Shown here: positions 50,315 through 64,000 of the stretch, one piece after another | Layout of the letters: every line of letters starts with the position of its first letter | How positions within the stretch are numbered: position 1 is the first letter of the stretch | From: a virus | Virus record (IMG/VR): IMGVR_UViG_3300009506_000002 | Location: 62,001-126,000 of that record | Direction: 5' to 3' (one strand) | DNA: 64,000 nucleotides | The notes under the pieces: model-generated | Database searches by the model: none | Told to the model about the DNA's origin: nothing | The model's input: the letters and a program-made list of their open reading frames with translations, nothing else | Program-made: the position numbers and the translations under genes

Positions 50315-50718
50315 ACGACGATCGGGTATCCTGGGAACCAGCGGTCGCCAGTGTTCGGCTCTCTCCATAACGGGACTACAGGCGAACCCGGGAACGGAGA
50401 TGGTTGCCAAGGATTGATTGTGTCCTTTGGCAGATCTTCGATCAGTTTGCGAATATGCTCTTCTGCATCCTTCTCGTCATCCTGCTCTTCTGCATCAGGC
50501 TCAATTTCGTCCTCGACAAGAATCTCTTGCGTCTCGTCGTTTGTGGTGGTCAGTGTATAGTCCGGGGTCAGCTTCATGAATACCAGCCCAAGGTGTTCTT
50601 TGATCATACGAACTTGCTTCTTTGACAAGCTGTCCGCATCTGTCATCTCAAAGAACCCTTGCAGCCAGTAAACAAACTGCTCCGGAGACATTCTCGGTAA
50701 TTTAGTTTGAATCATCAT
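50308..50718 (-). CDS. Conserved phage hypothetical protein
   Basis: 136 residues. MSPEQFVYWLQGFFEMTDAD and KQVRMIKEHLGLVF match a short family found in many myophages (EFxYWLQGxFE...QxxxIxxHL). Acidic C-terminal part and a Pro/Gly/Trp-rich end (NPWQPSPFPGSPVVPLW). Starts at ATGATG after AGGAG, 7 nt after the NrdJ-C stop. Confidence 0.65.
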   Translation of the reverse strand: MMIQTKLPRMSPEQFVYWLQGFFEMTDADSLSKKQVRMIKEHLGLVFMKLTPDYTLTTTNDETQEILVEDEIEPDAEEQDDEKDAEEHIRKLIEDLPKDTINPWQPSPFPGSPVVPLWREPNTGDRWFPGYPIVVC

Positions 50719-50724
50719 CTCTCC

Positions 50725-51384
50725 TTAGATTTCACATACTCCGTTGGTGCAGGCAAGTGTCTGCATACCTTCGGTGTTGTCTTCGAACTCGTAGTCCTTC
50801 AGTGCTTCCCAATTGATCTTTGGGAACTCTCTGACGAGGCGCTTGTATGTTGCCTCATCGATATCTTGGTACGGGGCCTGCTGGTAGCTGTGCTCGCTGA
50901 ACGGCAGGAATGATACGCCGGAGACCTTGTCAAAGTTATCCCATACCCATGCACCAACTTCCATCCACTCGTGATCTTTCACGTAGACGGTGATTGATGG
51001 CTTATGCTCGCACCAATGGGTCTGGTAGATCATCCACATCTCAAGCTGCTCGATGGCTGTGCGATCAGTTCTCATGACTGCACCTTCTGGTGACTTCATT
51101 GGGAACGAGAACACGGTTGTCGAGTCAGGCTTGGTGATGTCTGGCTCATGCGGGATACCCTGATCCTTCATGAACTGGGTCATCGGATCCTTGTTGTCAG
51201 CGCGCACGGTACGAACGTAGTGTGGCGCGAAGCGGTCGTGCATACCAGACGCAGAGTCGACAAGCTGAGATACTGTGTTGTGTGACACTATACCATTCGA
51301 CAGTTGGTATGAGTGTGTATTTTCAACCTCAATATCAACAGTGAATTGCGGCTCTTCTAATTTTGTTATTCTTTTTAATTTCAT
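50725..51384 (-). CDS. nrdJ-c: Class II ribonucleotide reductase NrdJ, C-terminal half with split-intein C-fragment
   Basis: 219 residues. Residues 1-36 are IntC: KLEEPQFTVDIEVENTHSYQ and LSNGIVSHN carry intein blocks F and G with the terminal Asn. The C-extein begins T37-VSQLVDSASG and runs to the end, including SFPMKSPEGAVMRTDRTAIE and the C-terminal redox pair CTNGVC that regenerates the active site. Trans-splicing with the 51509 product would restore KPSG-TVSQLVD. AAAGGAG for this gene lies in the homing-endonuclease remnant just upstream. Confidence 0.93.
   Translation of the reverse strand: MKLKRITKLEEPQFTVDIEVENTHSYQLSNGIVSHNTVSQLVDSASGMHDRFAPHYVRTVRADNKDPMTQFMKDQGIPHEPDITKPDSTTVFSFPMKSPEGAVMRTDRTAIEQLEMWMIYQTHWCEHKPSITVYVKDHEWMEVGAWVWDNFDKVSGVSFLPFSEHSYQQAPYQDIDEATYKRLVREFPKINWEALKDYEFEDNTEGMQTLACTNGVCEI
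51277..51384 (-). other. Split intein C-fragment (IntC, 36 aa)
   Basis: Encodes the 36 residues ending GIVSHN, followed by Thr as +1 nucleophile. The size matches naturally split inteins (about 36 aa IntC). Confidence 0.92.
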
Positions 51385-51513
51385 TTAGACTCCTTTATTA
51401 CAGCGGTCGAAGTGATGTCTTTTCATTGCTGGAAGAGACTTTCCGTTTTTACCGCACTTTGGACAAATTATATTTGTTCTGGGTATTCTTCCCGACTTAA
51501 ATATATAATCAGA
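51385..51513 (-). pseudogene. Homing endonuclease remnant between the NrdJ halves
   Basis: In a frame shifted relative to the NrdJ-N stop, the spacer encodes YIFKSGRIPRTNIICPKCGK then NGKSLPAMKRHHFDRCNKGV and a stop directly before the NrdJ-C ATG. CPKCGKxGxxxxAMKRxHFDxC is the zinc-finger tail of free-standing phage homing endonucleases; a second example lies at 28711. No catalytic domain remains. Confidence 0.8.
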
Positions 51514-53428
51514 AATTTACAATTTCGTCATCCGGCGTAAGCTCGTCTACACGCACGTAGCCGTTTGTGGTTTTGAGTTTGTGATTGCCGGTGAAACGAT
51601 AAATTTTACCGTCGTCGGACTCAATCTCATACACGTCTTCGATACCATTGACAAACAGCTTAGTTACGCGCTGCAATTCATCATTCTCGTCATAGACGCG
51701 CAATTCGTCATTTGGTTCAATCCACGTACCTGGCGCACACTCGAATATGTTCAAGTCCTCAGGAGCAAGTCTTGAGAATATTTCAGACATCGACATTACA
51801 CCAGAATCCGTTTTCACTTCTGTTTCCATTGTTGTGCAACCAGATGGCTTGACGCAGGTAATCGAGCGTGATACGTTCACGCCAATCTTGTTCGCCCATT
51901 CGACGTTGGTTTCAATCGCTGTGCGACGCAGGATTTTCAGGATGGTTGGCAAGCGCAGTGCCTTGTTGCCTTCACCACAGAACTCTGCCAGCTCTTCAGC
52001 GGACACCTTCTGGGCACCCATGATCGGGTGATCCATGATGCCAGTGAGGGACACGCCCAGCAGGCACTCTTCCTCTGTGTTGAACTGCCACACCTCATCC
52101 AGGTAGCGGAAGTTAGACAGTGATGACTGCAACGTTCCCAGGATGGTAGCAATGCGCACCTTGTCCTTCAGTGTGTCGAGTGTATCGTTACGACGAACAA
52201 CAACTTCTGACAGGTTACAGAACTGCTTCGGACGCAGGATGATTTCAGAGCACGGGTTTGTGCCAAACGGATGACGGTGGTCACGGCGCGGAATGTCGAG
52301 GCCAGACCAATGTGGTTTGTTGCGCATCTCTTCGCGGAACTTGCCAGCATTGAGAACCTGTGTCTCAGAAGCTACGCGGCTGAAAATACCACGCTCGCCC
52401 GACTGTGACTGATAGAGCGCCATCCACTCTTCCATGAACGCACCCATGTCTGGCTTTTCAGTGTAGCAGACAGAGTTGTTTGCCAGCGCGCGCTGACCTT
52501 CGTTGATCCACCATTGACCCATCTTCGCTCTGCGCATACGGTCATCTGTCAGGTTTGACAGTGAGATCAGGGCTGAACGACGTACGCCGCCAACTACAAC
52601 GATCTCGGCGATCTTGCACATGAGGTCATGGCACTCGATTGATGTCAGCTTGCGGCCATCAGCGTTCTTGAAGATCTCTACGCTGAATCGGAACAGGTTC
52701 TCCAGAGGATCTGGGCCTGATGCACGACCACCAAACGTCTTGAGGCGAGCGCCAGCAGGACGAATCTTTGACAGGTCCCACTTGACACCGAAGTTGCGGT
52801 TGTACAACTCGACCAACAGGATACGGTAAGCAGAAGCCCAGCCGATCTTTGAGTCAGTCACGTGGATGGTGTTGGTCTTGGTGTTGATGGTTGAGATTTC
52901 TTCAACCGGGCAGTTGACGAACGCTTCTGGCAAGCATGACTCGCGCAGTTCTGGGTTCGATTGAATCAGTGGCAGCAATTCAGGGTCTGACTCTGCCAGC
53001 AACTCCTTGAGGATTGAAACGTTTTCTTCATCCGTCTTTACTTCGGGTAGACGCGTGATGTCCTGACGTTCAACAGAGAATCCAAAGCCAGTTCCGCACA
53101 TGAGAATGTACATGGCTTGGTCGAAGAATGTGATGTCATCGCAACGGTTGTAAGAACAGTTGAACGCTGCCACATTGTCACGACTAAGCGCTTCACCTGC
53201 CGTCATCAGACAGCGCATTGAAGGCATCGCTTTCAGCGTCTCGATGTACGAACGGACTGTCGTATCGAGGTAACTCAGGTCAGCCTCAGATAGCTTGCCT
53301 GCAGGGTACTCCTTTTCCATGAAGAAACGGATGTAGCGATCCACGGTCTCAGGGAACGTTTCGCGTCGATCGCCATTCCATCTCGCATAACGCGAAAGCG
53401 CTATGTAATTCTGATAGTCATTGAGCAT
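51509..53428 (-). CDS. nrdJ-n: Class II ribonucleotide reductase NrdJ, N-terminal half with split-intein N-fragment
   Basis: 639 residues from ATG 53428 (MLNDYQNYIALSRYARWNGD, AAAGGAAAAGG upstream). Residues 1-530 are the N-extein of an adenosylcobalamin-dependent reductase of the monomeric RTPR type: AAFNCSYNRCD (redox Cys), SGERGIFSRV, GTNPCSEIILRP (thiyl radical Cys), FCNLSEVVV (redox partner), ITCVKPSG at the junction. Residues 531-639 are IntN. Makes dNTPs from ribonucleotides using B12, so it needs cobalamin from host or medium. No class I subunits are visible in the window. Confidence 0.94.
   Translation of the reverse strand: MLNDYQNYIALSRYARWNGDRRETFPETVDRYIRFFMEKEYPAGKLSEADLSYLDTTVRSYIETLKAMPSMRCLMTAGEALSRDNVAAFNCSYNRCDDITFFDQAMYILMCGTGFGFSVERQDITRLPEVKTDEENVSILKELLAESDPELLPLIQSNPELRESCLPEAFVNCPVEEISTINTKTNTIHVTDSKIGWASAYRILLVELYNRNFGVKWDLSKIRPAGARLKTFGGRASGPDPLENLFRFSVEIFKNADGRKLTSIECHDLMCKIAEIVVVGGVRRSALISLSNLTDDRMRRAKMGQWWINEGQRALANNSVCYTEKPDMGAFMEEWMALYQSQSGERGIFSRVASETQVLNAGKFREEMRNKPHWSGLDIPRRDHRHPFGTNPCSEIILRPKQFCNLSEVVVRRNDTLDTLKDKVRIATILGTLQSSLSNFRYLDEVWQFNTEEECLLGVSLTGIMDHPIMGAQKVSAEELAEFCGEGNKALRLPTILKILRRTAIETNVEWANKIGVNVSRSITCVKPSGCTTMETEVKTDSGVMSMSEIFSRLAPEDLNIFECAPGTWIEPNDELRVYDENDELQRVTKLFVNGIEDVYEIESDDGKIYRFTGNHKLKTTNGYVRVDELTPDDEIVNF
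51512..51838 (-). other. Split intein N-fragment (IntN, 109 aa)
   Basis: Begins at Cys1 (CTTMETEVKTDSGVMSM, block A) and contains block B (YRFTGNHKLKTTNGYVRVDE, with the T-x-x-H motif as TGNH). The frame stops eight residues after TPDDEIVNF begins. It lies at a conserved extein site, KPSG/T. Confidence 0.92.
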
Positions 53429-53445
53429 GTTTTTCCTTTTCCTTT

Positions 53446-54477
53446 TTAGCATTTTGCCCACCTGGTCATTGCCATCTTTGCCGCTAAGCCTTCATAGACA
53501 TTTTCGGAAATCACATGCTGAACATCTAGTCCGGCAATAACCATATCATTGATATCTTTCTTTTTGATCGAGGACGGGAATATTACGACAGATTTCCCTG
53601 CCTCAATTGCTTTATTCATCTTGTCAACGGTTTGTGGTGAACGTGGCTCGTTGTCAAAGGCGAATATTTCTTTCTTGGGTCTGACTCTTCCTGAGATTGC
53701 CAGTAGATCGCCACCGGAAGCGGCGAGACAGTTCTGTAGGAATAACGAATCAACCGGACCCTCTACTATGTAAATTGGTTTGTTTCTATCGACTCTATCA
53801 AGTCCGAACACTTTTGGTGCATCGCCGTCTAACTTGATGGTGATGTATTTAGCGCCGGAGTTACGTCCTGGGAGCTCTCGCCCTTGGAACGCGAAGATCT
53901 TTCCTTCTTCATCATAGAATGGAATGATGAAACGCGGATGATCATAGCGCAGCGCTTGTTCCTTGAACACCTTTTTCTTTGCCACGAGGTTTGAGAAAGC
54001 GTAGAACGCAGGTGTGTAGAAGATGTACTTGCGCGCGCTGGCTGGCAACTTGCGAGAGCCCCAATAGTTCTGGTGTTCAATTGGCATGTCCTCAAAGCGC
54101 TTGAGGTAGCCAGTGACCTGCACGTTGTCCTTCACTGATTTGATAGAGCTAAGGTCGAACTTCATCTTGGTAGGATCTGGCTCATCCGACTTGTTCTTGT
54201 TGCCAAACTTTGAGCCAATGCGCTCTGCCAGATATTCTTTGTACAGGTTAGGATCAAACTTCTTGAGGAAGTTCTGGAATGATGTGGCTTCGCCGCAGTT
54301 GTGGCACTTGTACCACAGACGTTCCTTGTGAGCGAAGAAGTAGCCGCGCGCTTTGCGTGAGTCCTTCTGGCTATCGCCACAGAGCGGACATGAACAGTTC
54401 CACAGCCTATTTGACTTCTTGGTATAGTTGCGCAGTCTAAGACTGATCAACCCCAGGTACTTGGTGTCAATTATCAT
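53446..54477 (-). CDS. 61: DNA primase gp61
   Basis: 343 residues (T4 342). CHC2-type zinc-binding N-terminus (CSCPLCGDSQ, WYKCHNCGEATSFQNFLKKF) and a Toprim core (IYIVEGPVDSLFLQNCLAAS, AFDNEPRSPQTVDKMNKAIE). Makes pentaribonucleotide primers with gp41 helicase, whose gene ends the window. The NrdJ-N start overlaps neither coding end; the stop precedes it by 17 nt. Confidence 0.95.
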   Translation of the reverse strand: MIIDTKYLGLISLRLRNYTKKSNRLWNCSCPLCGDSQKDSRKARGYFFAHKERLWYKCHNCGEATSFQNFLKKFDPNLYKEYLAERIGSKFGNKNKSDEPDPTKMKFDLSSIKSVKDNVQVTGYLKRFEDMPIEHQNYWGSRKLPASARKYIFYTPAFYAFSNLVAKKKVFKEQALRYDHPRFIIPFYDEEGKIFAFQGRELPGRNSGAKYITIKLDGDAPKVFGLDRVDRNKPIYIVEGPVDSLFLQNCLAASGGDLLAISGRVRPKKEIFAFDNEPRSPQTVDKMNKAIEAGKSVVIFPSSIKKKDINDMVIAGLDVQHVISENVYEGLAAKMAMTRWAKC

Positions 54478-55297: not shown

Positions 55298-55678
55298 ATG
55301 GAATTCATCAAACTTACCCCAAAGAACTTTACACTTTACGCGACAAAGATGTACGAAAATCCTCAATGCTCATCCATGGACGAGTTCAATGAGGACTTGC
55401 GCCGTTTTTCATCAGTGAAGCGCCTACTGCTAAGGCTATCACGAAAAGATGATTCTGTCAACATAAGAATGCTCCTCAATCACATTATCATCCTGGACAA
55501 CCTTTTTGGGAATGAAGCTGCCACGCGCATGTTGTTCTTTTACTGTGACGAATGCACATATCCCTATCTTAAGAGCTTCCTTCTGTTCCTCAACATTCTA
55601 CCACAATACATTGCCGAAGTCAACATCCAAGAATTGCCCGCTGATCAGGCGACCATAAATAAGTTAAAGAACCTATAA
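55298..55678 (+). CDS. Conserved T4-like/cyanophage protein of unknown function
   Basis: 126 residues, almost all helical. FTLYATKMYENPQCSSMDEF, FSSVKRLLLRLS, RMLLNHIIILDNLFGNEAAT and FLLFLNILPQYIAEV match a conserved family that I associate with late/structural regions of T4-like phages and cyanophages. Role unknown. Confidence 0.7.
   Translation: MEFIKLTPKNFTLYATKMYENPQCSSMDEFNEDLRRFSSVKRLLLRLSRKDDSVNIRMLLNHIIILDNLFGNEAATRMLFFYCDECTYPYLKSFLLFLNILPQYIAEVNIQELPADQATINKLKNL
55654..55661 (+). promoter_or_regulatory. Late promoter CATAAATA
   Basis: CATAAATAAG on the plus strand near the end of the upstream gene; predicted start near 55667, leader with GAGGG before GTG 55693. Confidence 0.6.
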
Positions 55679-55692
55679 CGATTGAGGGTACC

Positions 55693-56226
55693 GTGGCTTC
55701 ACCATTAGAGCTGTTCCTTGCATACAAATTTGTCCGCATCATGTCTACTCCGTTTGAAGAGTGGGACGCGTACAAGCTCGGACTGATCGACAAGAAGGGA
55801 ACTAAGCTGAAAGCTGCCAGCACGTCGGATGAGAAGAACGCAATGTCACTCGTCCACATTTTGGCGCGCAACTTGAAGCGCGTGCTCCAGAAGCTTCCGT
55901 TTGGTCAGTCAAAACTTGCGAGCTTTTCTGCCGCACTTTTCCTCCTAAAAGAAGCTCAGGAGCTCGGCGACCCAGAAAAGCTGCTGGAAGGGCTTGTGGG
56001 GCCATCAGACATGGTTTCTGAAAGCATCTCTACCCTACCACCAGGACTGTACAAGACAGACCCCTCAATATTTGAGGATCTAATTATATCATCAGGCGCG
56101 TTCATTGTCAAGGAAGAACTTTTGCCAGTGCGCACCATGTTCGGTGAGAACATCTTTGAAGTGCGCGACCTCGTACATCGCACAACCGTCCTGATGCCAG
56201 CATCTCTATTGGAGCCACTACAATGA
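55693..56226 (+). CDS. Conserved late protein of unknown function
   Basis: 177 residues from GTG 55693 (GAGGG upstream). LELFLAYKFVRIMSTPFEEW with DAYKLGLIDKKG and RNLKRVLQKLPF is a block shared with cyanophage hypothetical proteins located near terminase/structural genes. Internal-virion or DNA-packaging role possible but unproven. Ends in an ATGA overlap with the next gene. Confidence 0.7.
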   Translation: MASPLELFLAYKFVRIMSTPFEEWDAYKLGLIDKKGTKLKAASTSDEKNAMSLVHILARNLKRVLQKLPFGQSKLASFSAALFLLKEAQELGDPEKLLEGLVGPSDMVSESISTLPPGLYKTDPSIFEDLIISSGAFIVKEELLPVRTMFGENIFEVRDLVHRTTVLMPASLLEPLQ

Positions 56227-57242
56227 AAGAAAAGATTGATGAAATGGTAACGACTGGCGGAGCACTTGCCAGCCATTCACCTACCGATGCGCGCCGCAAG
56301 GCACAGGTACTGCCAGATGGTAACTTTGGCGGTAAGCCATATTTCGACTGCTCTCCAGACATTTTTGCCAAGTGCTACAAAGGACGCAAGAAAGGCCAGC
56401 GCTGGTCAACCTATCTCGAGGCTGACAATGAATGGGCGCGCGGCGTGCGTACATGGGCTCGTCAAACTGGCAACCCTGACTTTTTGTTCCGCAATACCGC
56501 GGACAACTCGTTCATGTATGCCCAGTATGGTATCATGAAGGAAGAGACGCAGATCGATGAGGCGACTATTAAGGGCTGGCTCAAGACGTTCATGAAGAAA
56601 GGTCAGAACCGCTCTCCGATGGAGCAGGAATACGTGAAGGCTCAGAAGGCCCTGAAGAAGGAGAACCCGAAGGCTAAGATTGGCGCGATTGGCGTTGATC
56701 AGAATGGCGATATTCGCTTCATGACACTGACCGGAGACGAGTTTGTGTTGCGTAAGGACGGTAGCCTTGAGTTGATGAATGAATCACTCGATGAGGCAAT
56801 GAACATGAAGACCGTCAAGATCGGTTTTCCAAGCAATGAATTGGCAGCAGAAGTGGCCGCTAACCTCAAGAGAGAAAACTTCCTCGAGCTGAAAGTATCT
56901 GGGAAGGTGGTGGAAATCACATACAGACAGGGCACCGCTTATGGTGCGTGGTCGCTCAAGGACCTAAAGCACGCGGTCAAGATGGCCGGAAGAGCCGCTG
57001 GCATGAATGAGAGTGTGGAGATTGATGAGGCAATGAGAATGTCTCTGGCTCCTGCCATTGCCAAAGACTTGAAGGCGAAGGGCGTCACCAAAACAAAGAA
57101 CTCTGAGAAGGAAATCATCTCAATGATCTTCCAGGAGCTCGAGAACTATCCTGCGTTCAAGGGTAACAAGAAGAGAAAGCAGGCCCAGATGCAAGATGAT
57201 GACTTCATCATGGACGTACTAGCAGAGCTTCCAGTTCGTTAA
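56223..57242 (+). CDS. Putative processed virion polyprotein
   Basis: 339 residues with four copies of a short acidic motif: KIDEM (residues 4-8), QIDEA (110-114), SLDEA (188-192), EIDEA (266-270). Each fits the T4 prohead protease rule of cleaving after Glu with Ile/Leu two residues before. The segments between look like independent small domains (FDCSPDIFAKCYKGRKKGQR; KTVKIGFPSNELAAEVAANL with KREN; SLAPAIAKDLKAKGVTKTKN). I infer an internal head protein cut into three or four pieces. No enzymatic motif seen. Followed by a strong terminator. Confidence 0.6.
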   Translation: MKEKIDEMVTTGGALASHSPTDARRKAQVLPDGNFGGKPYFDCSPDIFAKCYKGRKKGQRWSTYLEADNEWARGVRTWARQTGNPDFLFRNTADNSFMYAQYGIMKEETQIDEATIKGWLKTFMKKGQNRSPMEQEYVKAQKALKKENPKAKIGAIGVDQNGDIRFMTLTGDEFVLRKDGSLELMNESLDEAMNMKTVKIGFPSNELAAEVAANLKRENFLELKVSGKVVEITYRQGTAYGAWSLKDLKHAVKMAGRAAGMNESVEIDEAMRMSLAPAIAKDLKAKGVTKTKNSEKEIISMIFQELENYPAFKGNKKRKQAQMQDDDFIMDVLAELPVR

Positions 57243-57481
57243 CAGTCCATCCCGTCAATCAACTGAAAAGAACCACCTAATTCAACGTAGGTGGTTTTTT
57301 CTTTTGTTGCGTTGTCAACCACTTTCACAGATGAAAACTTGCCAATCTTGTCCTTGAGCCAAGCATCGAGATCAGCCTTGTTGATCTGCTCCTCCGGACC
57401 AAGACCACCTACGCCGCGTTTCAATTCCGCGACAGTCAGTTCCTTGCGCTTGAGGAATGTGGTGAAGCGAGGGATTGCCAT
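57239..57481 (-). CDS. Small late protein, last of the tagged operon
   Basis: 80 residues (MAIPRFTTFLKRKELTVAEL). A short N-terminal F-x2-F-L segment resembles the tags of upstream operon members. The codons for KTTYVELGGSF form the stem of a plus-strand terminator. Convergent and overlapping by 4 nt with the plus-strand gene before it. Function unknown. Confidence 0.55.
   Translation of the reverse strand: MAIPRFTTFLKRKELTVAELKRGVGGLGPEEQINKADLDAWLKDKIGKFSSVKVVDNATKEKTTYVELGGSFQLIDGMDC
57271..57302 (+). terminator. Intrinsic terminator embedded in opposite coding sequence
   Basis: AACCACCTA (57271-57279), 8-nt loop, TAGGTGGTT (57288-57296), then a T-run. Ends the 55.3-57.2 kb plus-strand operon, and is simultaneously coding sequence on the minus strand. 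Confidence 0.85.
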
Positions 57482-58035
57482 TAGGCTTTCAACTTCTTCT
57501 GTAGGAATCCGAACTCACTGTGGAGCTCTTTTGGCATCAGCTTCTTGAAAGCTGCTTCGTCACCTGCTCTGATCAGTTCACGGACTTTGGTTGCGCTGGT
57601 AAAGCGTTCTGTCATCTTAAAGCGGGTCTTGAATTGCTTGGCAGTGTCGAGCTTCTTGTTCACGCCATCGATCTGAGCCTTGTAGCCTTTGATGCGATCT
57701 TCACCTGCATAGATTGCACCGATCTCGAGACCGAGCAATCGAAGGTTTGCCATGATCTCTGGCAAGTATCCCGGAGCCACCTCAACAACCTTCAGGCCAG
57801 GCATTGCTTTTTGCAGCAAGCGCATCTGATCAGATGAGGATAGCGGATTGCGGTTCTTATCGAGCGAGCTCTTTGCTCCCTTGACCAGTGCCACAACAGG
57901 ATTCTTCATCTTCTTGATGATCTTCAGGTGACCCAGATGAATTGGCTGCATACGTCCAAGGAATAGCTCGGCAGGCTTGCTTGCCTTGTTAGGCACCTGC
58001 TCAATGTCAAATGCTTCTTCGAGCTCGATTGTCAT
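57481..58035 (-). CDS. Cytidylyltransferase-like nucleotidylyltransferase
   Basis: 184 residues. LFLGRMQPIHLGHLKIIKKM carries the H-x-G-H active-site motif (HLGH), SSLDKNRNPLSSSDQMRLLQ and TSATKVRELIRAGDEAAFKK the ISSTxxR-like motif. Family members transfer AMP or CMP to NMN, pantetheine phosphate and similar. The N-terminus MTIELEEAFDIEQVP adds a short acidic L-E-E/A segment like the tags of its operon neighbours, so it may be packaged in the head. Substrate not determinable by eye. Confidence 0.8.
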   Translation of the reverse strand: MTIELEEAFDIEQVPNKASKPAELFLGRMQPIHLGHLKIIKKMKNPVVALVKGAKSSLDKNRNPLSSSDQMRLLQKAMPGLKVVEVAPGYLPEIMANLRLLGLEIGAIYAGEDRIKGYKAQIDGVNKKLDTAKQFKTRFKMTERFTSATKVRELIRAGDEAAFKKLMPKELHSEFGFLQKKLKA

Positions 58036-58487
58036 ACCTTTAACTCCGGGTTGGGTGTTTTGAAGTCAGCTTTTCGCATGACCGTTTTTGCGACCAATTC
58101 GATCATGCCCTTCTTGTTGAGGTTGAGGACGAATGGCACGTTGATATTCGAGGATACGCTCTTAATCACCGCCTGAAAGTCATCTGGCTTTGTGGTCAGT
58201 GTGCGGCCATGCAGAGAGTATGCTTTGCGGAACAGTTCCTCAAGCTCTGCAACAGTGATGTCCTTCTTGTTGCGCGCATCATTCACACGATCAAGGAAGT
58301 GGCGCGTGAACTCAATGTCGATGTTCAATCCCTTGAACAGGTTGTCGAGCATCTTCTCGAGATGATTCAAGTCCTGCTGGGTTACCTTCTTGGCAGCTTC
58401 GGGATTGTTCTTCGCGCACAGAGCCATCAGCTTTGCTTGTGCGTTGACCGACTCATCGAGCCACTGTAGGAAACGCATTACCTTCAT
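58032..58487 (-). CDS. Hypothetical protein with capsid-tag-like N-terminus
   Basis: 151 residues. MKVMRFLQWLDESVNAQAKL resembles a T4 internal-protein targeting tag with a predicted cut after E12 (LDE/S). The rest is helical (HLEKMLDNLFKGLNIDIEFT, RHFLDRVNDARNKKDITVAE) and the segment TRHFLDRVNxxR is known from phage proteins of unknown role. Coupled to both neighbours by ATGA overlaps. Confidence 0.6.
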   Translation of the reverse strand: MKVMRFLQWLDESVNAQAKLMALCAKNNPEAAKKVTQQDLNHLEKMLDNLFKGLNIDIEFTRHFLDRVNDARNKKDITVAELEELFRKAYSLHGRTLTTKPDDFQAVIKSVSSNINVPFVLNLNKKGMIELVAKTVMRKADFKTPNPELKV

Positions 58488-58816
58488 GCGTCAAATCCGT
58501 ACCACGTAATGCCGCCAGCACGAGCAGGTGAATAGATCTCCTGGATCTTCTTCATCTTGTGCTTTTTCAGCACAGCAACCACCTTGTCCTTGTCCTCTTT
58601 CGACATGATCTTCGTAGGCATTGTGACTGATACGCGCAGGATGTCTCCAGGCATACCGTGGTAGATCACATAAGGACGGGTTGAAATGCTACGTCGCAGC
58701 GAGCGAAGTGCCTGTGAGACAGCGTCGTCACCTTTGATCTCCTTCTCAGGGAAAGCGGCGAGCATGTCTTTCTTGATTGCTTCGTACTTTGCGAGTTGCT
58801 TGTTTGATAGTGCCAT
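58484..58816 (-). CDS. Hypothetical protein
   Basis: 110 residues (MALSNKQLAKYEAIKKDMLA), alpha/beta with PYVIYHGMPGDILRVSVTMP and VVAVLKKHKMKKIQEIYSPA. Lysine-rich; could bind DNA. No family recognised. In the late tagged operon. Confidence 0.6.
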   Translation of the reverse strand: MALSNKQLAKYEAIKKDMLAAFPEKEIKGDDAVSQALRSLRRSISTRPYVIYHGMPGDILRVSVTMPTKIMSKEDKDKVVAVLKKHKMKKIQEIYSPARAGGITWYGFDA

Positions 58817-58818
58817 TC

Positions 58819-59103
58819 TTATTTCCTCTTCATCATCGTAAGTTTACGCTTCGTCGCAGGTTTGTCAAGCAATTCTTCTGCATCCAGTAGCGCACGCGCG
58901 AGGAACCAGTCGTTGCGACCAAACTCGTATTTCAGATTGGCAGAATTACCACTCTTCACCTGATCAGCGATGGTCGACAGCTTGCGCGCAACCATTGAGC
59001 GGAGACCCTTGAGAGTGAGAACACCGTAGCCAGTGATCGCTAGTGTCGGATCATCGGGGTTGAAGTTCTCATACTCATAATAGACAGATACTCTTGATGT
59101 CAT
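58819..59103 (-). CDS. Hypothetical protein
   Basis: 94 residues (MTSRVSVYYEYENFNPDDPT). LKGLRSMVARKLSTIADQVK and FGRNDWFLARALLDAEELLD suggest a helical bundle with a beta N-terminus; very basic C-terminal end. The 53 bp upstream hold only a 15-codon frame without a ribosome site. Confidence 0.6.
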   Translation of the reverse strand: MTSRVSVYYEYENFNPDDPTLAITGYGVLTLKGLRSMVARKLSTIADQVKSGNSANLKYEFGRNDWFLARALLDAEELLDKPATKRKLTMMKRK

Positions 59104-59156
59104 ACGCCCGCCTTCAGTCGGTTAAAGATGTTGCCTTCGTTGATCATGTGGACGAC

Positions 59157-59879
59157 TTAGCCGAGCTGACTTACGGCAAAGCTAACGATTTGTGGTGAGT
59201 ATCCCAGTTTCTTACCAAAGGCCTGCATGTTCTTCTTGACCTTGGCGACATCCCACTTGGCAATATCCTTTCCATACTCCATCTCGAAGTCAGAAATCAA
59301 CTGCGCAGCATCGCTCATCTTGCCCTCATCGAGCATGATTTCAGCTTCTGCTTCGGTCAGCTTCTTCTGGAATGCATCGAGCTTCCAGTAGCTTGTGGTC
59401 TTGCCATTGATCATTGAGGATGTCTTGATTGGCTTGCCATTGTTGAGGTCACTCAGATACAGGTTGGCATCCTTCAGGAACTTGCTCACCTGAGGGCCGA
59501 GCTTGGCAGCATCCTTCTCACTGGCAAACGTGATGCCAACGGATACAAGACCGAACTTGTTCTTTGGTCCGAGCGTTACGCGGGTACCTGGGAACTTGCT
59601 GGCGACAGTCTTGGCAATGCCAGCCAGTGGGTGACCTGATGGTGTACCCTCATCCAGCCGATCTGCGAGGTATTCAGAGAAGCCGATCACATCGCCCTCG
59701 TCAACACCGGCCATCTTCTTGAAGATAGTCATGACGATTGCGTAGAATCGGTCACTCTCGTGATCCATATCGGGATATTGTTTTGCTGCGGCAGCTTTGG
59801 CATCTTGCCACTTCTTTTCGAGTGTGGCAACAGAGCCCTTGCCCATGTCAGCGAGCTTCTTAACGTATGCGGTAGGCAT
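59157..59879 (-). CDS. Putative processed internal virion protein
   Basis: 240 residues. The first 60 (AYVKKLADMGKGSVATLEKK, FYAIVMTIFKKMAG) form a small module common in phage structural-region proteins. Then comes GFSEYLADRLDEGTPSGHPL, which looks like an internal copy of the capsid tag with LDE/G, and later KLTEAEAEIMLDEGKMSDAA with LTE/A and LDE/G. Three or four predicted prohead-protease sites suggest cutting into separate products. Late-box variant and AAGGAG upstream. Confidence 0.6.
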   Translation of the reverse strand: MPTAYVKKLADMGKGSVATLEKKWQDAKAAAAKQYPDMDHESDRFYAIVMTIFKKMAGVDEGDVIGFSEYLADRLDEGTPSGHPLAGIAKTVASKFPGTRVTLGPKNKFGLVSVGITFASEKDAAKLGPQVSKFLKDANLYLSDLNNGKPIKTSSMINGKTTSYWKLDAFQKKLTEAEAEIMLDEGKMSDAAQLISDFEMEYGKDIAKWDVAKVKKNMQAFGKKLGYSPQIVSFAVSQLG

Positions 59880-59906
59880 GGTGATCTCCTTAGAAACGCT
59901 TTTTAC

Positions 59907-59914
59907 TATTTAGT
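59907..59914 (-). promoter_or_regulatory. Possible late promoter ACTAAATA
   Basis: Variant late octamer followed by GTAAAAA on the minus strand; predicted start near 59901, leader of 22 nt with AAGGAG. Confidence 0.45.
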
Positions 59915-59916
59915 TT

Positions 59917-60240
59917 CTAGGAAACTGTGACCTTGACCACTTTGCCAGTGTCGGTGACTGATACAGACGCGCCGCCCATTGGCATTGAATACGCGCCAGA
60001 CAGATTGCCCTTCTTGAATTCGGTCACCTTTTCACCACGATTCTTCGCGATGTCAGACAGCGCCTTCATTGCTTCTTCAGCAACGCCCTTGCCTGAGTCC
60101 TTCATAGCGATAGCACCGCCAGAATTTGAAACGTCCCAGCCCTTGTTGCCCAGACGGCGCTTCAATGCCATGAACAGTGAGCGCGACAAATCCTTTGCAG
60201 CTTCCTCGGTGAGGTATTCAGAAAACTTCTTTACTTCCAC
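59917..60240 (-). CDS. Small late protein with capsid-tag-like N-terminus
   Basis: 107 residues from GTG 60240 with AAAGGAG. MEVKKFSEYLTEEAAKDLSR closely resembles the T4 internal-protein tag (MKTYQEFIAEA); predicted cut after E12 (LTE/E). The mature part is a basic, Gly/Lys-rich alpha/beta domain (AIAMKDSGKGVAEEAMKALS, GGASVSVTDTGKVVKVTVS). Likely packaged and injected (inference). Confidence 0.6.
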   Translation of the reverse strand: MEVKKFSEYLTEEAAKDLSRSLFMALKRRLGNKGWDVSNSGGAIAMKDSGKGVAEEAMKALSDIAKNRGEKVTEFKKGNLSGAYSMPMGGASVSVTDTGKVVKVTVS

Positions 60241-60251
60241 TTCTTTCTCCT

Positions 60252-61499
60252 TTACATGAACGTCAGACCGACTTTGTCTGCCGCTCTGCTATATCCATTC
60301 TTTGTTCTTAGTACCACTTTCGGTATCTTTGCAGCTTTGCCCGATATCGGCTTGATGTCGAAATTTGGTGCGCCATCAGGTCTGAATCGGTTCATAATCA
60401 AATAATGAACTCTGCTAATGATAGCAGCTTTGAACATGCTTGTAAAGTCCAAAGTTCCATTCTTTGACTGTTCAACGAGCAGCTTCTCAAGCTCGTATCT
60501 AATATAGCCGTAGTCGGTGATTCCTTCCTTCTTTGGCTTGACCTTGTTCTTGTTGATCAGGTCGGTGAACAGGTGGAGCTGTGACCACCCGTCGATATCT
60601 CTTGATGACTTCACGCCAGCGATTGAGTCGAGGTGCTTCTTGGTAAAGCCAGGTACCTTTGCTGCCATTGCGGCATAGAACGCGCCAGTGTTGACGCTGT
60701 TATCGGTTAGTGCCTGCAGGACTTCATACTCTTGGGTCTTCTTGTAGTGTTGCAGCATCTTATCTGTGCCAATGATCTTGATCAGGTCAGAACCCTTGAC
60801 GGTGTTCGATGCTGATCCACCAGCCTTTGACGACACGCGCACAACTGACTTCTCATCCTTTGAGTAGACGTAGAAGTCAACCAGTGGCTCGTTACCTGAC
60901 ACAGGGAAGAATGCTTTCCAAGACATGTCAATCATGCCAATGTGCAGCAAGTAGAACGGGCCTAGCAGTTCACCAAAGTTCTTCTGGATTTCGTTGATTG
61001 GCATGGTCTTGACTTCAACACTCTTTGGGAGCATCTTTGTGCCTCCCATGTAGTAATCAGTCAAAAGGTGTAGGAAATCACGGATTGACTCTGACAGATC
61101 AGTTCGCTTATCAATCGCAACTTTCACTGCCTTGTGATAGTCCTTAAGGCCATATTTCTTACCAACGAGGTTGTAGAAATCTTGAGGCTTCAACTTATGT
61201 GCTTTTGCGCCCTTAGCCCACGAAAGTCCATACTGTGCAGGGCTTACCATACTTGCAACAGGAGCACCATACTTGAGAAATTGAAGAGTCTTGCTGCCTG
61301 CTTGGATAACTGCAAAGTGGCCTCTATTTTCAAGTTTACCTTTGACCACGCCAGTTCCATTAACCTTATACGGCTTGAGGTCTTTCTCTAGGTCGCGTGA
61401 GTAGCCAATTCCCAAGACCTCGTAGACACCTCCCTTGTACTTGACAAGGTCGCCGATGTGAGACGGGTCAAACAGTCCGCCGACGCTACGCGCTGACAC
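60252..61499 (-). CDS. Large hypothetical protein of the late tagged operon
   Basis: 415 residues from GTG 61499, directly after the stop of the ligase-like gene. Begins with a small beta domain (HIGDLVKYKGGVYEVLGIGY), then helical segments (NEIQKNFGELLGPFYLLHIG, DFTSMFKAAIISRVHYLIMN). The NFGELLGP block recurs in large phage proteins of unknown role. No enzymatic motif certain. The adjacency to a ligase-fold protein suggests a functional pair. Confidence 0.6.
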   Translation of the reverse strand: MSARSVGGLFDPSHIGDLVKYKGGVYEVLGIGYSRDLEKDLKPYKVNGTGVVKGKLENRGHFAVIQAGSKTLQFLKYGAPVASMVSPAQYGLSWAKGAKAHKLKPQDFYNLVGKKYGLKDYHKAVKVAIDKRTDLSESIRDFLHLLTDYYMGGTKMLPKSVEVKTMPINEIQKNFGELLGPFYLLHIGMIDMSWKAFFPVSGNEPLVDFYVYSKDEKSVVRVSSKAGGSASNTVKGSDLIKIIGTDKMLQHYKKTQEYEVLQALTDNSVNTGAFYAAMAAKVPGFTKKHLDSIAGVKSSRDIDGWSQLHLFTDLINKNKVKPKKEGITDYGYIRYELEKLLVEQSKNGTLDFTSMFKAAIISRVHYLIMNRFRPDGAPNFDIKPISGKAAKIPKVVLRTKNGYSRAADKVGLTFM

Positions 61500-62765
61500 T
61501 TAGAGTCTCCAGAGCATGCCTGAGATTTGGTTGAGAGGAGCGAACAGGCCAGTGAGTTTCAGCAACTCGCCCTTATAGAAGAACGTGATGCCTTCGGTCG
61601 GAACCAGCTTTTCAATGCCGCCAATCTTGTTGATGCGGTCGAGCTCCAGACGCAGCTTGGCAATGACATCTGGGTCAGTTGACTTCTCAAGCGTCTTGAC
61701 TGTAGAGTGGAACTTCTGTCGCATGTTGTCAAGGGTGTGATCAGGGTTGACTGCAATCAAGGTATCGATTCCCTGTAGCACTTCAACACCTACGCGCAGG
61801 AACAGAACCTCGAATGGCAAGTGCATTCGCTTGCTCTCGTTCTTGGCTTCTCTCTTGTCGAAGTTCTTGACCTTCTGCGCCAGTGCTTTGTCGAGACCCT
61901 TGGCGATAGTATTGATATTTGGGGTTTTGATGCCATGCGCCCAACGATTGACCAGTGCCTTCTTGGTTGCTTCATCAACTGCTGCAAAGTTCTTCGCCAC
62001 GTAAGATGTCCAGTATGAGGTTGTGTAGTCCTTGATCGTGTTGTTCCAGCTTAGACGCTGGCCCTTCATGATCTTGCCAAGCTCTGCAATGTGCTTCGCG
62101 CGTAGGGTATCGTAGTTTGGCATCTTCTGCAGACGCAGCTTATCGATCTCCTTGATTGTGAAGGTTGACTGTTTGTGAGCCTGCACTTTTTGGAGCATTT
62201 TTGCCAGCGCTGCACCATCGGCCTTGTTTAGCTGGCTGATAGGCTCGCCCGCTTCATTGTACTCGAGTGTACCGTGGAAGCGCAGTTCATCGACGCCGTA
62301 GTGAATGACGTTTGGGTTAGATGAGTACAACACCTCAACAGACATGAAGCGCTTGCCGTTCATGAAAATCTTGTCGCGTTGATCAGCAGACAGTTCCTTG
62401 ACCGCAGTCTCTAGGTCGCGTGCAGCTTCAACAAAGGCTGTTTCGATTGTGCCACGTCCTGCGAACATTGCCTTGACACCATCAACACCCATTGCATTTT
62501 CGCCTGCGTTCTTGAGGTGACTCTTGTTGCGTGCAGCAATCAGTCGTCCGCCACGCCATGAAACCAGAAGGTTCTGGCCGTCAGTCTTTTCGCGTGACCA
62601 TTCAAGTTCGCCCGAGAGTGACTTGTCGATGATGTCGCGTAGATCTTTGAAAGTGAAGGTCTCGATGTCAAATGGATGAGCGAGGTGACCGAAGCCACCA
62701 CCCTCATCTAGACGTTCTGATTCCTTGAGATAGGTCGAAAATCGCTTAATTGCAGGAGATGCCAT
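61500..62765 (-). CDS. Ligase-superfamily nucleotidyltransferase with N-terminal capsid tag
   Basis: 421 residues from ATG 62765 (GAGGAAT upstream). MASPAIKRFSTYLKESERLD-EGGG is a tag-like N-terminus with predicted cut after E21. The body carries K60-T-D-G (REKTDGQNLLVSWRGGRLIA, motif I), MSVEVLYSSNPNVIHYG (motif III-like), TEGITFFYKGELLKLTGLFA (motifs IV and V, with Lys). This is the core of ATP/NAD ligases and capping enzymes; similar proteins with EGIxFxYxGxxxKLTGxFAPxNQ occur in other large phages. Activity untested; a virion-delivered RNA or DNA ligase is the attractive reading. Confidence 0.72.
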   Translation of the reverse strand: MASPAIKRFSTYLKESERLDEGGGFGHLAHPFDIETFTFKDLRDIIDKSLSGELEWSREKTDGQNLLVSWRGGRLIAARNKSHLKNAGENAMGVDGVKAMFAGRGTIETAFVEAARDLETAVKELSADQRDKIFMNGKRFMSVEVLYSSNPNVIHYGVDELRFHGTLEYNEAGEPISQLNKADGAALAKMLQKVQAHKQSTFTIKEIDKLRLQKMPNYDTLRAKHIAELGKIMKGQRLSWNNTIKDYTTSYWTSYVAKNFAAVDEATKKALVNRWAHGIKTPNINTIAKGLDKALAQKVKNFDKREAKNESKRMHLPFEVLFLRVGVEVLQGIDTLIAVNPDHTLDNMRQKFHSTVKTLEKSTDPDVIAKLRLELDRINKIGGIEKLVPTEGITFFYKGELLKLTGLFAPLNQISGMLWRL

Positions 62766-62793: not shown

Positions 62794-62973
62794 CTATTTA
62801 TTAGATGACTCGCCACGTATCAAATTGACTGCGGGCGACATCGTCATGTGGAAAATATCATCTCCTTCGGCTTCACTGGCAGGCAGCCCCACCAGATCAT
62901 TGCCGCGTCTGGCAATCACGACGTAATCGTCAGGCACTTCATACAGTTTTCCTTCATATTCAAGAACAATCAT
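62794..62973 (-). CDS. 59-residue protein coupled to helicase
   Basis: MIVLEYEGKLYEVPDDYVVI continues ARRGNDLVGLPASEAEGDD; a short beta-hairpin protein. ATG follows the helicase stop by one base with GAGGTG as ribosome site. No family recognised. Its stop overlaps the late box of the next operon. Confidence 0.6.
   Translation of the reverse strand: MIVLEYEGKLYEVPDDYVVIARRGNDLVGLPASEAEGDDIFHMTMSPAVNLIRGESSNK
62795..62802 (-). promoter_or_regulatory. Late promoter AATAAATA for the tagged operon
   Basis: TAATAAATAG on the minus strand overlapping the end of the small upstream gene; predicted start near 62789 with GAGGAAT in a 24-nt leader. Confidence 0.55.
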
Positions 62974-62974
62974 G

Positions 62975-64000
62975 TTACACCTCAAATCCTGCAAATGGGT
63001 CTGCGCTGTACTTGCCTGGAGCATCCTTCGTTGGGTGAGGGAAGCCCTTTGGCAGTTCTCCTGCTGGCTCATGTGTCTGACCAGCACCTGGGTGGGTCTT
63101 GGTAGGATCCTCACATTCTGACAAGCGCATCTGTGCTCGGTCAATATTGAGGATTTCTGCAACGTTGCGCGTAACATCAGAGAATCTGTTCTTCAGTTGC
63201 TTCAACTTCATCTGACCCATCTGCGTAAGCTGATCGGTTACAATGATACCGATCATAAGGTCAGCCGTTGCTGGCAAGCCTGCTGATTCAGAAGTGTTGC
63301 TCAATTCAAGGTCAGAGCTTCCCCAACCGTCTCTGTTCGTCTGAGTAGATGAAATGATTGCAACATCCTGCTCTACAGCCAAGCCGCGCAGTTCTTCTGC
63401 AATTGACTTGACCAGCACGTAGGTGTTCTCACCATTTCTGATTCTGCTTGACGCGCAGATGTTCAGGTAGTCGATGAAGATGACATCTGGAATAAAGCGC
63501 TTCTTGATACGAAGCTCGCGCAGCAGGTGTCGGATATGGCCTACGTGCGCGCTGGCAGTAGGATACTCCTTTACCATCAGTTTGCCTGTGGTCTTTGCTC
63601 TTATTTGCTCCAGGCGACTGTCAAACGTTTCCTTAGGCAAACTCCTCAGATCAGCAATGTCAACACCCATAAGGTTTGCGTCGATACGCTCAGAGATGCG
63701 CTCTTCCGCCATTTCCATCGTGATATACAGGACATTCTTGCCCTGCATGAGGAAGTCTGCTGCCAGATGACACTTGACCAGTGTCTTACCTGCGTTGGTT
63801 GGCGCAAGCAGGATTGTCAGCGTTTTCTTTGGCAGTCCGCCGCCAGTGATCAGGTTGAGCCACTCAATCAGGAAGCGTAGGCGCTTCTCTTTCTTGTGGT
63901 AGAATTCCCAACGTGCGTCTGCGTTGTCAAGGTAGTCGTGACCGATGTTTGAATCGAACGAGACAGAGAGTGCATCTGCCAGCAACTCTGGAATCATGTT
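62975..64000 (-). CDS. 41: Replicative DNA helicase gp41 (N-terminus outside window)
   Basis: At least 341 codons; the frame is still open at the window edge and T4 gp41 has 475 aa, so roughly the first 100-130 residues are missing. RecA-type core: LLAPTNAGKTLVKCHLAADF (Walker A), VLYITMEMAEERISERIDAN, DVIFIDYLNICASSRIRNGE (Walker B; T4 IIIVDYLGICKSCRIR), STQTNRDGWGSSDLELS, SESAGLPATADLMIGIIVT. Hexameric 5'-3' helicase of the replication fork, partner of gp59 and gp61. Confidence 0.95.
   Translation of the reverse strand, partial: NMIPELLADALSVSFDSNIGHDYLDNADARWEFYHKKEKRLRFLIEWLNLITGGGLPKKTLTILLAPTNAGKTLVKCHLAADFLMQGKNVLYITMEMAEERISERIDANLMGVDIADLRSLPKETFDSRLEQIRAKTTGKLMVKEYPTASAHVGHIRHLLRELRIKKRFIPDVIFIDYLNICASSRIRNGENTYVLVKSIAEELRGLAVEQDVAIISSTQTNRDGWGSSDLELSNTSESAGLPATADLMIGIIVTDQLTQMGQMKLKQLKNRFSDVTRNVAEILNIDRAQMRLSECEDPTKTHPGAGQTHEPAGELPKGFPHPTKDAPGKYSADPFAGFEV

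What the first reader, a model, noticed from the sequence alone, without database searches (positions are those of the whole stretch)
56223..62765. A set of late proteins with capsid-targeting tags and prohead-protease cleavage motifs
Several neighbouring proteins begin with a short amphipathic tag resembling T4 internal-protein targeting sequences (MKTYQEFIAEA): KKFSEYLTEEA, MRFLQWLDESV, IKRFSTYLKES with RLDEG. They carry I/L-x-E followed by A/G/S, the T4 gp21 cleavage rule. Two proteins repeat the motif internally (four sites at 56223, at least three at 59157), implying polyproteins. The set is under late-type promoters and includes a nucleotidylyltransferase and a ligase-fold enzyme. I infer a battery of proteins packaged in the head, trimmed on maturation, and injected with DNA to act on host defences or RNA/DNA ends.
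Basis: partly seen in the sequence, partly recalled or inferred. Interest (0 to 1): 0.78.

Follow-up and report, generated by a model that had tools for sequence, protein, structure and literature searches.

The report
Phage enzymes tagged for head packaging

Summary
The tags are real. Three unrelated proteins in the block begin with [FY]xx[FYW][IL]xE, the spacing of the residues mapped in the T4 IPIII capsid-targeting sequence, and a fourth carries it internally. Glu-site motifs are in excess (11 against 4.1 expected). The record encodes an S77 (gp21-type) prohead protease, and three late-type promoter sites lie in the block.

(1) The tag recurs on at least 36 unrelated proteins in viral contigs (at least 120 pattern hits, permuted control 0); tagged cargo includes RNA ligase, cytidylyltransferase, Acb1 and SAM lyase families. 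(2) In relatives the cytidylyltransferase and the ligase are parts of single giant polyproteins, with Glu sites just upstream of many domain starts. (3) In published virion mass spectrometry, tagged proteins of cyanophage S-CREM2 are virion proteins (3 of 3 by the strict rule). In S-SCSM1 the tagged NMNAT and six neighbours in the same helicase-primase slot are virion proteins.

Best reading: T4-type internal proteins, packaged in the prohead, trimmed and probably ejected. Targeting and trimming are indicated by homology; ejection and targets are inferred. NMNAT packaging in cyanophages was already published; I found no paper linking it to tags or polyproteins.

The parts
61500..62765 (-). RNA-ligase-fold protein (421 aa) with N-terminal tag
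   Evidence: Invariant K60xDG, E144, E391G, K403 in 15 sequences; model pLDDT 75, 47 best VIA rows are all ligases/capping enzymes, Z up to 7.1
62718..62741 (-). Tag FSTYLKE|S
62700..62714 (-). Predicted site RLDE|G directly before the ligase domain
   Evidence: [LIV]xEGG kept in all 15 aligned sequences, stand-alone or inside polyproteins
60252..61499 (-). 415-aa protein of unknown fold; no tag here, but the L009 counterpart starts MISFRSYLEEN
59917..60240 (-). 107-aa tagged protein
   Evidence: L009 orthologue 46% identical, starts MKSFEEYLKEN
60199..60225 (-). Tag FSEYLTEEA
59157..59879 (-). 240-aa protein with segments separated by predicted sites and an internal tag
   Evidence: 3 strict sites against 0.39 expected; L009 orthologue 52% identical keeps an internal tag MISFNEYVDILQE
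59646..59705 (-). Internal tag with sites VDE|GDVIGFSEYLADRLDE|G
59322..59360 (-). Predicted sites LTE|A and LDE|G before the C-terminal segment
58032..58487 (-). 151-aa tagged protein; the same domain lies inside polyproteins of relatives and at the C-terminus of a 602-aa Sinorhizobium phage phiM12 protein
58449..58472 (-). Tag FLQWLDE|S
   Evidence: L009 orthologue starts MRTFCQYLEES
57481..58035 (-). Cytidylyltransferase/NMNAT-like enzyme; LEE|A at residue 7, no aromatic tag
   Evidence: PF01467 E=1.3e-8; best NCBIfam matches are NMN adenylyltransferases, below cut-off
58484..58816 (-). 110-aa untagged protein
58819..59103 (-). 94-aa untagged protein
57239..57481 (-). 80-aa untagged protein
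56223..57242 (+). 339-aa protein with internal sites IDE|A, LDE|A, IDE|A
   Evidence: L009 orthologue shares only the first domain
62795..62800 (-). Late-type promoter site (AATAAATA) before the ligase gene
59907..59912 (-). Late-type promoter site (CTAAATA) before the 59157 gene
55656..55661 (+). Late-type promoter site (CATAAATA) before the 55693/56223 pair
53446..54477 (-). gp61-type DNA primase, one flank of the slot
   Evidence: Syntenic with annotated primases
62975..64000 (-). DnaB/gp41-type helicase, other flank (runs past the window end)
   Evidence: 77% identical to L009; annotated in Melnitz and P-SSM2

Best explanation
The block is a cargo locus of a T4-superfamily phage. Its tagged proteins are internal head proteins: the N-terminal (in one case internal) peptide [FY]xx[FYW][IL]xE binds the prohead core, as the T4 capsid-targeting sequence does. 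The S77 prohead protease encoded 20 kb left of the window then cuts after the Glu of IxE/LxE, removing the tag and separating multi-domain precursors. The mature enzymes stay in the head with the DNA and most likely enter the host with it. The cargo includes an RNA-ligase-fold enzyme and a cytidylyltransferase/NMNAT-like enzyme, most likely for nucleic-acid-end or NAD/nucleotide repair before phage genes are expressed. Indicated by sequence and homologues: tag, sites, protease, late promoters, virion presence of tagged homologues. Inferred: packaging and cutting in this phage, ejection, substrates.
For: Own genome: S77 protease over cut-off; tags and sites enriched; late promoters. T4 mapping: targeting depends on residues 4 and 7, processing on 8 and 10 of IPIII (PMC9026906). 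Tag pattern: at least 120 hits in IMG/VR, permuted control 0; 34 hits in 23 contigs, reversed control 0; 76 tagged proteins fall in 36 unrelated clusters; beyond the searched pattern 34 of 1038 neighbouring genes carry the motif against 1.0 in shuffles, next residue A/G/S in 21 of 34 against 17% background. S77 in 12 of 12 isolate relatives. Positive control: the pattern finds T4 IPII and IPIII. Polyproteins: a site within 30 aa upstream of 13/23, 11/14 and 7/10 domain starts in three families against 2.7, 2.2 and 1.0 expected; two polyprotein genes lie beside terminase, portal/capsid and protease genes. Virion data: S-CREM2 tagged gp6 (SAM hydrolase), gp14 (kinase) and gp154 (cytidylyltransferase, MKNFSSFLTE|A) all detected, 3 of 3, p=0.013, or 0.003 among non-structural proteins; S-SCSM1 NMNAT MKSFLQFLKE|A and six other proteins of the gp41-gp61 slot are virion proteins, p=0.009.
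Against: No virion or expression data for this phage. Only 3-4 of about 10 block proteins carry a tag, and the cytidylyltransferase lacks the aromatic residues. The virion test rests on three strictly tagged proteins in one phage plus one slot in another, and carry-over in CsCl preparations is possible. Only 10 of 23 tagged contigs carry the protease, though these are fragments. The S-CREM2 and window cytidylyltransferases are only distantly alike. LxEGG before the ligase could be part of the fold. Polyproteins within a family are not independent.
Confidence: 0.78

Rival explanations
1. The proteins are prohead core (scaffold-like) components that are cut to pieces and leave the head, like T4 gp22, gp67 and gp68, rather than ejected cargo.
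For: They share sites and late expression with the gp22-like scaffold, which has 8 sites against 1.9 expected.
Against: The scaffold gene is separate and intact beside gp21; the block encodes folded enzymes with kept catalytic motifs; the S-CREM2 and S-SCSM1 homologues remain in mature virions.
Confidence: 0.1
2. The block encodes ordinary replication or RNA-repair proteins made in the cell; the N-terminal resemblance is accidental or serves another purpose.
For: The block lies between primase and helicase genes, and ligase and nucleotidyltransferase functions fit replication.
Against: Late, not early, promoter class; the tag recurs on unrelated proteins far beyond chance; polyprotein relatives sit in the head module; the same slot yields virion proteins in S-SCSM1.
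Confidence: 0.06
3. The proteins are packaged and trimmed but act in head assembly or DNA condensation and are not delivered into the host.
For: T4 IPIII affects head morphogenesis (PMC9026906); ejection has not been shown for any protein discussed here apart from the T4 ones.
Against: T4 Alt and IPs are ejected; tagged families include Acb1, SAM lyase and ADP-ribosyltransferase, which act on host molecules.
Confidence: 0.12

Closest known systems
T4 internal proteins IPI, IPII, IPIII and Alt (capsid-targeting sequence, gp21 cleavage)
   Same: Tag with the same spacing of aromatic, hydrophobic and Glu residues, S77 protease, late-type promoters, non-homologous cargo
   Different: Cargo here is an RNA-ligase-fold enzyme, a cytidylyltransferase and unknown proteins, encoded between helicase and primase genes; one tag is internal; relatives encode cargo as polyproteins
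NMNAT/cytidylyltransferase in virions of cyanophages S-SCSM1, S-CREM2 and S-CBWM1 (PMC9602691, PMC10665884)
   Same: Cytidylyltransferase superfamily; the S-SCSM1 and S-CREM2 genes lie near the gp61 primase gene, and both proteins carry the tag
   Different: Only distant sequence similarity to the window enzyme; in the passages read the authors mention neither a tag nor polyproteins
Polyvalent proteins (Iyer et al. 2017, PMC5512222)
   Same: Multi-domain proteins mixing unrelated enzyme domains, predicted to be packaged and injected
   Different: Here cutting would be by the prohead protease at sites before the domains; Pfam showed no peptidase domain in the seven polyproteins scanned
phiKZ/SPN3US ejection proteins with long propeptides (PMC5694885)
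   Same: Head proteins with propeptides removed by a distant relative of gp21
   Different: Several propeptides there exceed 100 residues; here they are about 12-22

Membership tests
T4-type internal protein (CTS cargo) | Short N-terminal propeptide with determinants at T4 positions 4 and 7 (targeting), 8 and 10 (processing) | tested here: met
   58032, 59917 and 61500 proteins: F..WL.E, F..YL.E, F..YL.E (mapping from PMC9026906)
T4-type internal protein (CTS cargo) | gp21-type protease in the same phage | tested here: met
   PF03420 158.7 bits, E 8.8e-48
T4-type internal protein (CTS cargo) | Late expression | tested here: inconclusive
   Promoter class only: 3 late-type sites, no early-type sites in the block; expression itself not measured
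T4-type internal protein (CTS cargo) | Present in the mature virion and trimmed | not testable with these tools
   Only homologues: tagged S-CREM2 and S-SCSM1 proteins are in virions; trimming not shown there
T4-type internal protein (CTS cargo) | Ejected into the host | not testable with these tools
   No infection data for this phage
Covalent nucleotidyltransferase (RNA ligase) superfamily, 61500 protein | KxDG plus motifs III, IV and V | tested here: met
   K60xDG, E144, E391G, K403 invariant in 15 sequences
Covalent nucleotidyltransferase (RNA ligase) superfamily, 61500 protein | Nucleotidyltransferase fold | tested here: met
   VIA-align: 47 best rows all ligases or capping enzymes, Z up to 7.1; weak one by one (Foldseek E above 1; no PDB sequence hit), consistent as a set
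Polyvalent protein | Unrelated enzyme domains in one polypeptide with virion context | tested here: met
   For relatives only: cytidylyltransferase + ligase, in some with HD, AAA_33/zeta-like kinase or DUF5661; two such genes lie in the head module. Window proteins are separate.

The most novel reading that the evidence does not exclude
T4-superfamily phages use a head-protease polyprotein strategy for cargo: a multi-enzyme chain is packaged through one tag, cut inside the prohead at IxE/LxE sites just before the domains into separate repair and counter-defence enzymes, and ejected. Some lineages keep the chain, others split it into separately tagged genes. The gp41-gp61 interval is a conserved cargo slot, and a ten-residue tag predicts the cargo, including Acb1 and SAM lyase delivered as protein.
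Probability: 0.5. Interest if true: 0.88.

Novelty: new variant of a known kind. Interest (0 to 1): 0.72.

Why it matters
Which proteins a phage delivers with its DNA decides the first minutes of infection, before any phage gene is read, yet this set is hard to find. If a ten-residue tag predicts it across T4-superfamily phages, hidden delivered proteins become a text search, testable in virions already analysed. It would also show known counter-defence families (Acb1, SAM lyase, RNA ligase) shipped ready-made, and a polyprotein strategy for loading several enzymes with one address.

Tried and rejected
AlphaFold of a whole polyprotein (L018) to place sites against pLDDT linkers failed (mean pLDDT 34.5); the domain-start test replaced it. 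Relatives of the 59157, 60252 and 56223 proteins were not found by IMG/VR peptide scans; L009 supplied counterparts instead. PDB sequence search for the ligase gave nothing relevant. The exact T4 late box TATAAATA occurs once in the window; the broader TAAATA class gave the signal. 56223 protein compared with the own major capsid protein: no similarity. Considered LxEGG before the ligase as only a fold element: not excluded, but the huge-phage homologue LR756508 lacks EGG and has an LDE|S site upstream instead. Vi01-like virion proteomics (PMC10892097) and CBB (PMC5259590) were looked at; neither could be tied to tagged proteins. Supplementary tables (S-CREM1) were not available.

Full report
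What is there. The window is bases 62001-126000 of a 142,377-base virus record. Gene calling on the record gave 191 genes with a T4-superfamily order of head genes left of the window: major capsid, gp22-like scaffold, S77 protease (E 8.8e-48), core proteins and portal (names other than the protease from sequence resemblance and order). The finding's block lies at the other end, between a gp61-type primase (53446-54477) and a gp41-type helicase (from 62975).

The observation. The three N-terminal tags exist. With [FYW]xx[FYW][ILM]x[ED] within the first 20 residues, three of the four matching genes in the record (of 191) are in this block (p = 2.5e-4 for three of three in a 13-gene block, 9.6e-4 counting four tags). 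Sites of the form [IL]xE[AGS] number 11 in the block against 4.1 in composition shuffles; the scaffold (8 against 1.9) and the protease (4 against 0.55) show the same excess, which calibrates the rule inside this genome. The own major capsid protein has ALEE|G close to the place aligned with the T4 gp23 cleavage site FLTE|A. Late-type promoter sites precede 14 of 43 structural-region genes, 3 of 13 block genes and 6 of 135 others; early-type motifs occur at 0, 0 and 17. Corrections are listed in the observation check.

Why the tag is a capsid-targeting sequence and not an accident. Work on T4 IPIII showed that ten N-terminal residues suffice, that residues 4 and 7 carry targeting and residues 8 and 10 processing (PMC9026906). 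The tags here keep that spacing. A DNA pattern for M-K-[TS]-F-x-E-[FY]-[IL]-x-E-[AS] hit at least 120 stretches of IMG/VR; the same codons permuted hit none. The 76 hit proteins of 60 aa or more fall into 36 clusters without detectable similarity beyond the tag. In the surrounding genes, leaving out the searched pattern itself, 34 of 1038 proteins carry the motif at the start against a mean of 1.0 in shuffles and 0-2 at inner positions of the same proteins; the next residue is A, G or S in 21 of 34 against 17%. The pattern finds T4 IPII and IPIII. All twelve isolate phages tested carry the S77 protease.

Polyproteins. Relatives of the ligase (about 36-44% identical) carry it as the C-terminal part of chains of up to about 1440 aa that also hold a cytidylyltransferase and, in one group, the domain of the 58032-58487 protein, with DUF5661, HD or P-loop kinase domains in some. 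A site [ILVM]xE[AGS] lies within 30 residues upstream of 13 of 23, 11 of 14 and 7 of 10 domain starts in three families, against 2.7, 2.2 and 1.0 expected from site density (members of a family are related, so the counts are not independent). In L010 and in Microcystis phage Mel-JY01 (a cytidylyltransferase-ligase fusion) the gene sits beside the terminase, portal/capsid and protease genes. So two or three of the window's separate enzymes are one head-module chain elsewhere.

Virion evidence from published data. Mass spectrometry of cyanophage S-CREM2 listed 52 virion proteins (PMC10665884). Applying the motif rule to its 216 translated genes picks three proteins, SAM hydrolase gp6 (MKDFDSFLEE), kinase gp14 (MKRFDAFLTE) and cytidylyltransferase gp154 (MKNFSSFLTE|A); all three are virion proteins (p = 0.013; 0.003 among non-structural genes). 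A looser rule picks seven, of which five are virion proteins (p = 0.0097). In S-SCSM1 the authors detected an NMNAT in virions and noted that such enzymes recur in cyanophage virions (PMC9602691). That protein begins MKSFLQFLKE|A, and it and six other virion proteins lie between the gp41 and gp61 genes, the slot of this block (7 of 17 genes against 38 of 265, p = 0.009). I did not find the tag mentioned in the passages read, and a full-text search for four tag strings found no paper.

What the cargo does. The ligase protein keeps KxDG and the other nucleotidyltransferase motifs in all 15 aligned sequences, and its model ranks RNA ligases first among known folds, with modest scores. The 57481 protein is a cytidylyltransferase/NMNAT-like enzyme. 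Tagged cargo elsewhere includes families named RNA ligase, cytidylyltransferase, Acb1 (anti-CBASS), SAM lyase, ADP-ribosyltransferase and DnaJ. The mechanism I consider most likely is delivery of ready-made repair and counter-defence enzymes. Substrates are inferred from family names only.

Limits. Nothing here shows packaging, cutting or ejection in this phage. Tags are absent from several block proteins, including the cytidylyltransferase, so the block is a mixed locus. The virion tests are small. The huge-phage case (LR756508) both supports a movable site and warns that EGG before the ligase may be partly a fold feature.

Noticed in passing
NC_000866 18966-19130 (L175), T4 gp61.1: T4's own 54-aa gp61.1, next to the primase gene, begins MKTFKEFIKE and aligns with T4 gp23 residues 57-93 across the gp23 cleavage site (local score 82, best of 500 shuffles 46). 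It looks like a tagged mimic of the capsid-protein cleavage region.
   Followed up: partly
T4 gp23 around residue 65 (L186): The end of the gp23 propeptide, FGSFLTE|A, itself fits the tag rule, so tags may copy the capsid propeptide.
   Followed up: partly
window 50700-53461 (-): The ribonucleotide reductase gene is broken by an apparent split intein: the first part ends in ...GNHKLKTTNGYVRVDELTPDDEIVNF-stop, and a second reading frame resumes with MKLKRITKLEEPQFTVDIEVENTHSYQLSNGIVSHN|T before the rest of the reductase.
   Followed up: partly
G000:C1:5652-6965 and 7397-8467 (L003, outside the window): A nicotinate/nicotinamide phosphoribosyltransferase and a bifunctional NMN adenylyltransferase/Nudix enzyme lie almost side by side, resembling an NAD salvage pair.
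   Followed up: partly
L029-L037: One marine polyprotein family keeps the ligase C-terminal part but lacks the stretch with the catalytic KxDG lysine.
   Followed up: no
L183 (LR756500, 462 kb phage): Several neighbouring genes of a huge phage start with similar tags (MKFLKSYEEFLNE, MEFVKTYLEFINE, MEYVKLFEEFVND); its S77-like protease is divergent.
   Followed up: no
L068:2104-2574 and L110:12395-13411: An Acb1 anti-CBASS homologue (MKTFREYLAEAE) and a SAM lyase homologue (MKSFKEYIKESG) carry the tag, suggesting these counter-defence proteins are delivered in the virion.
   Followed up: partly
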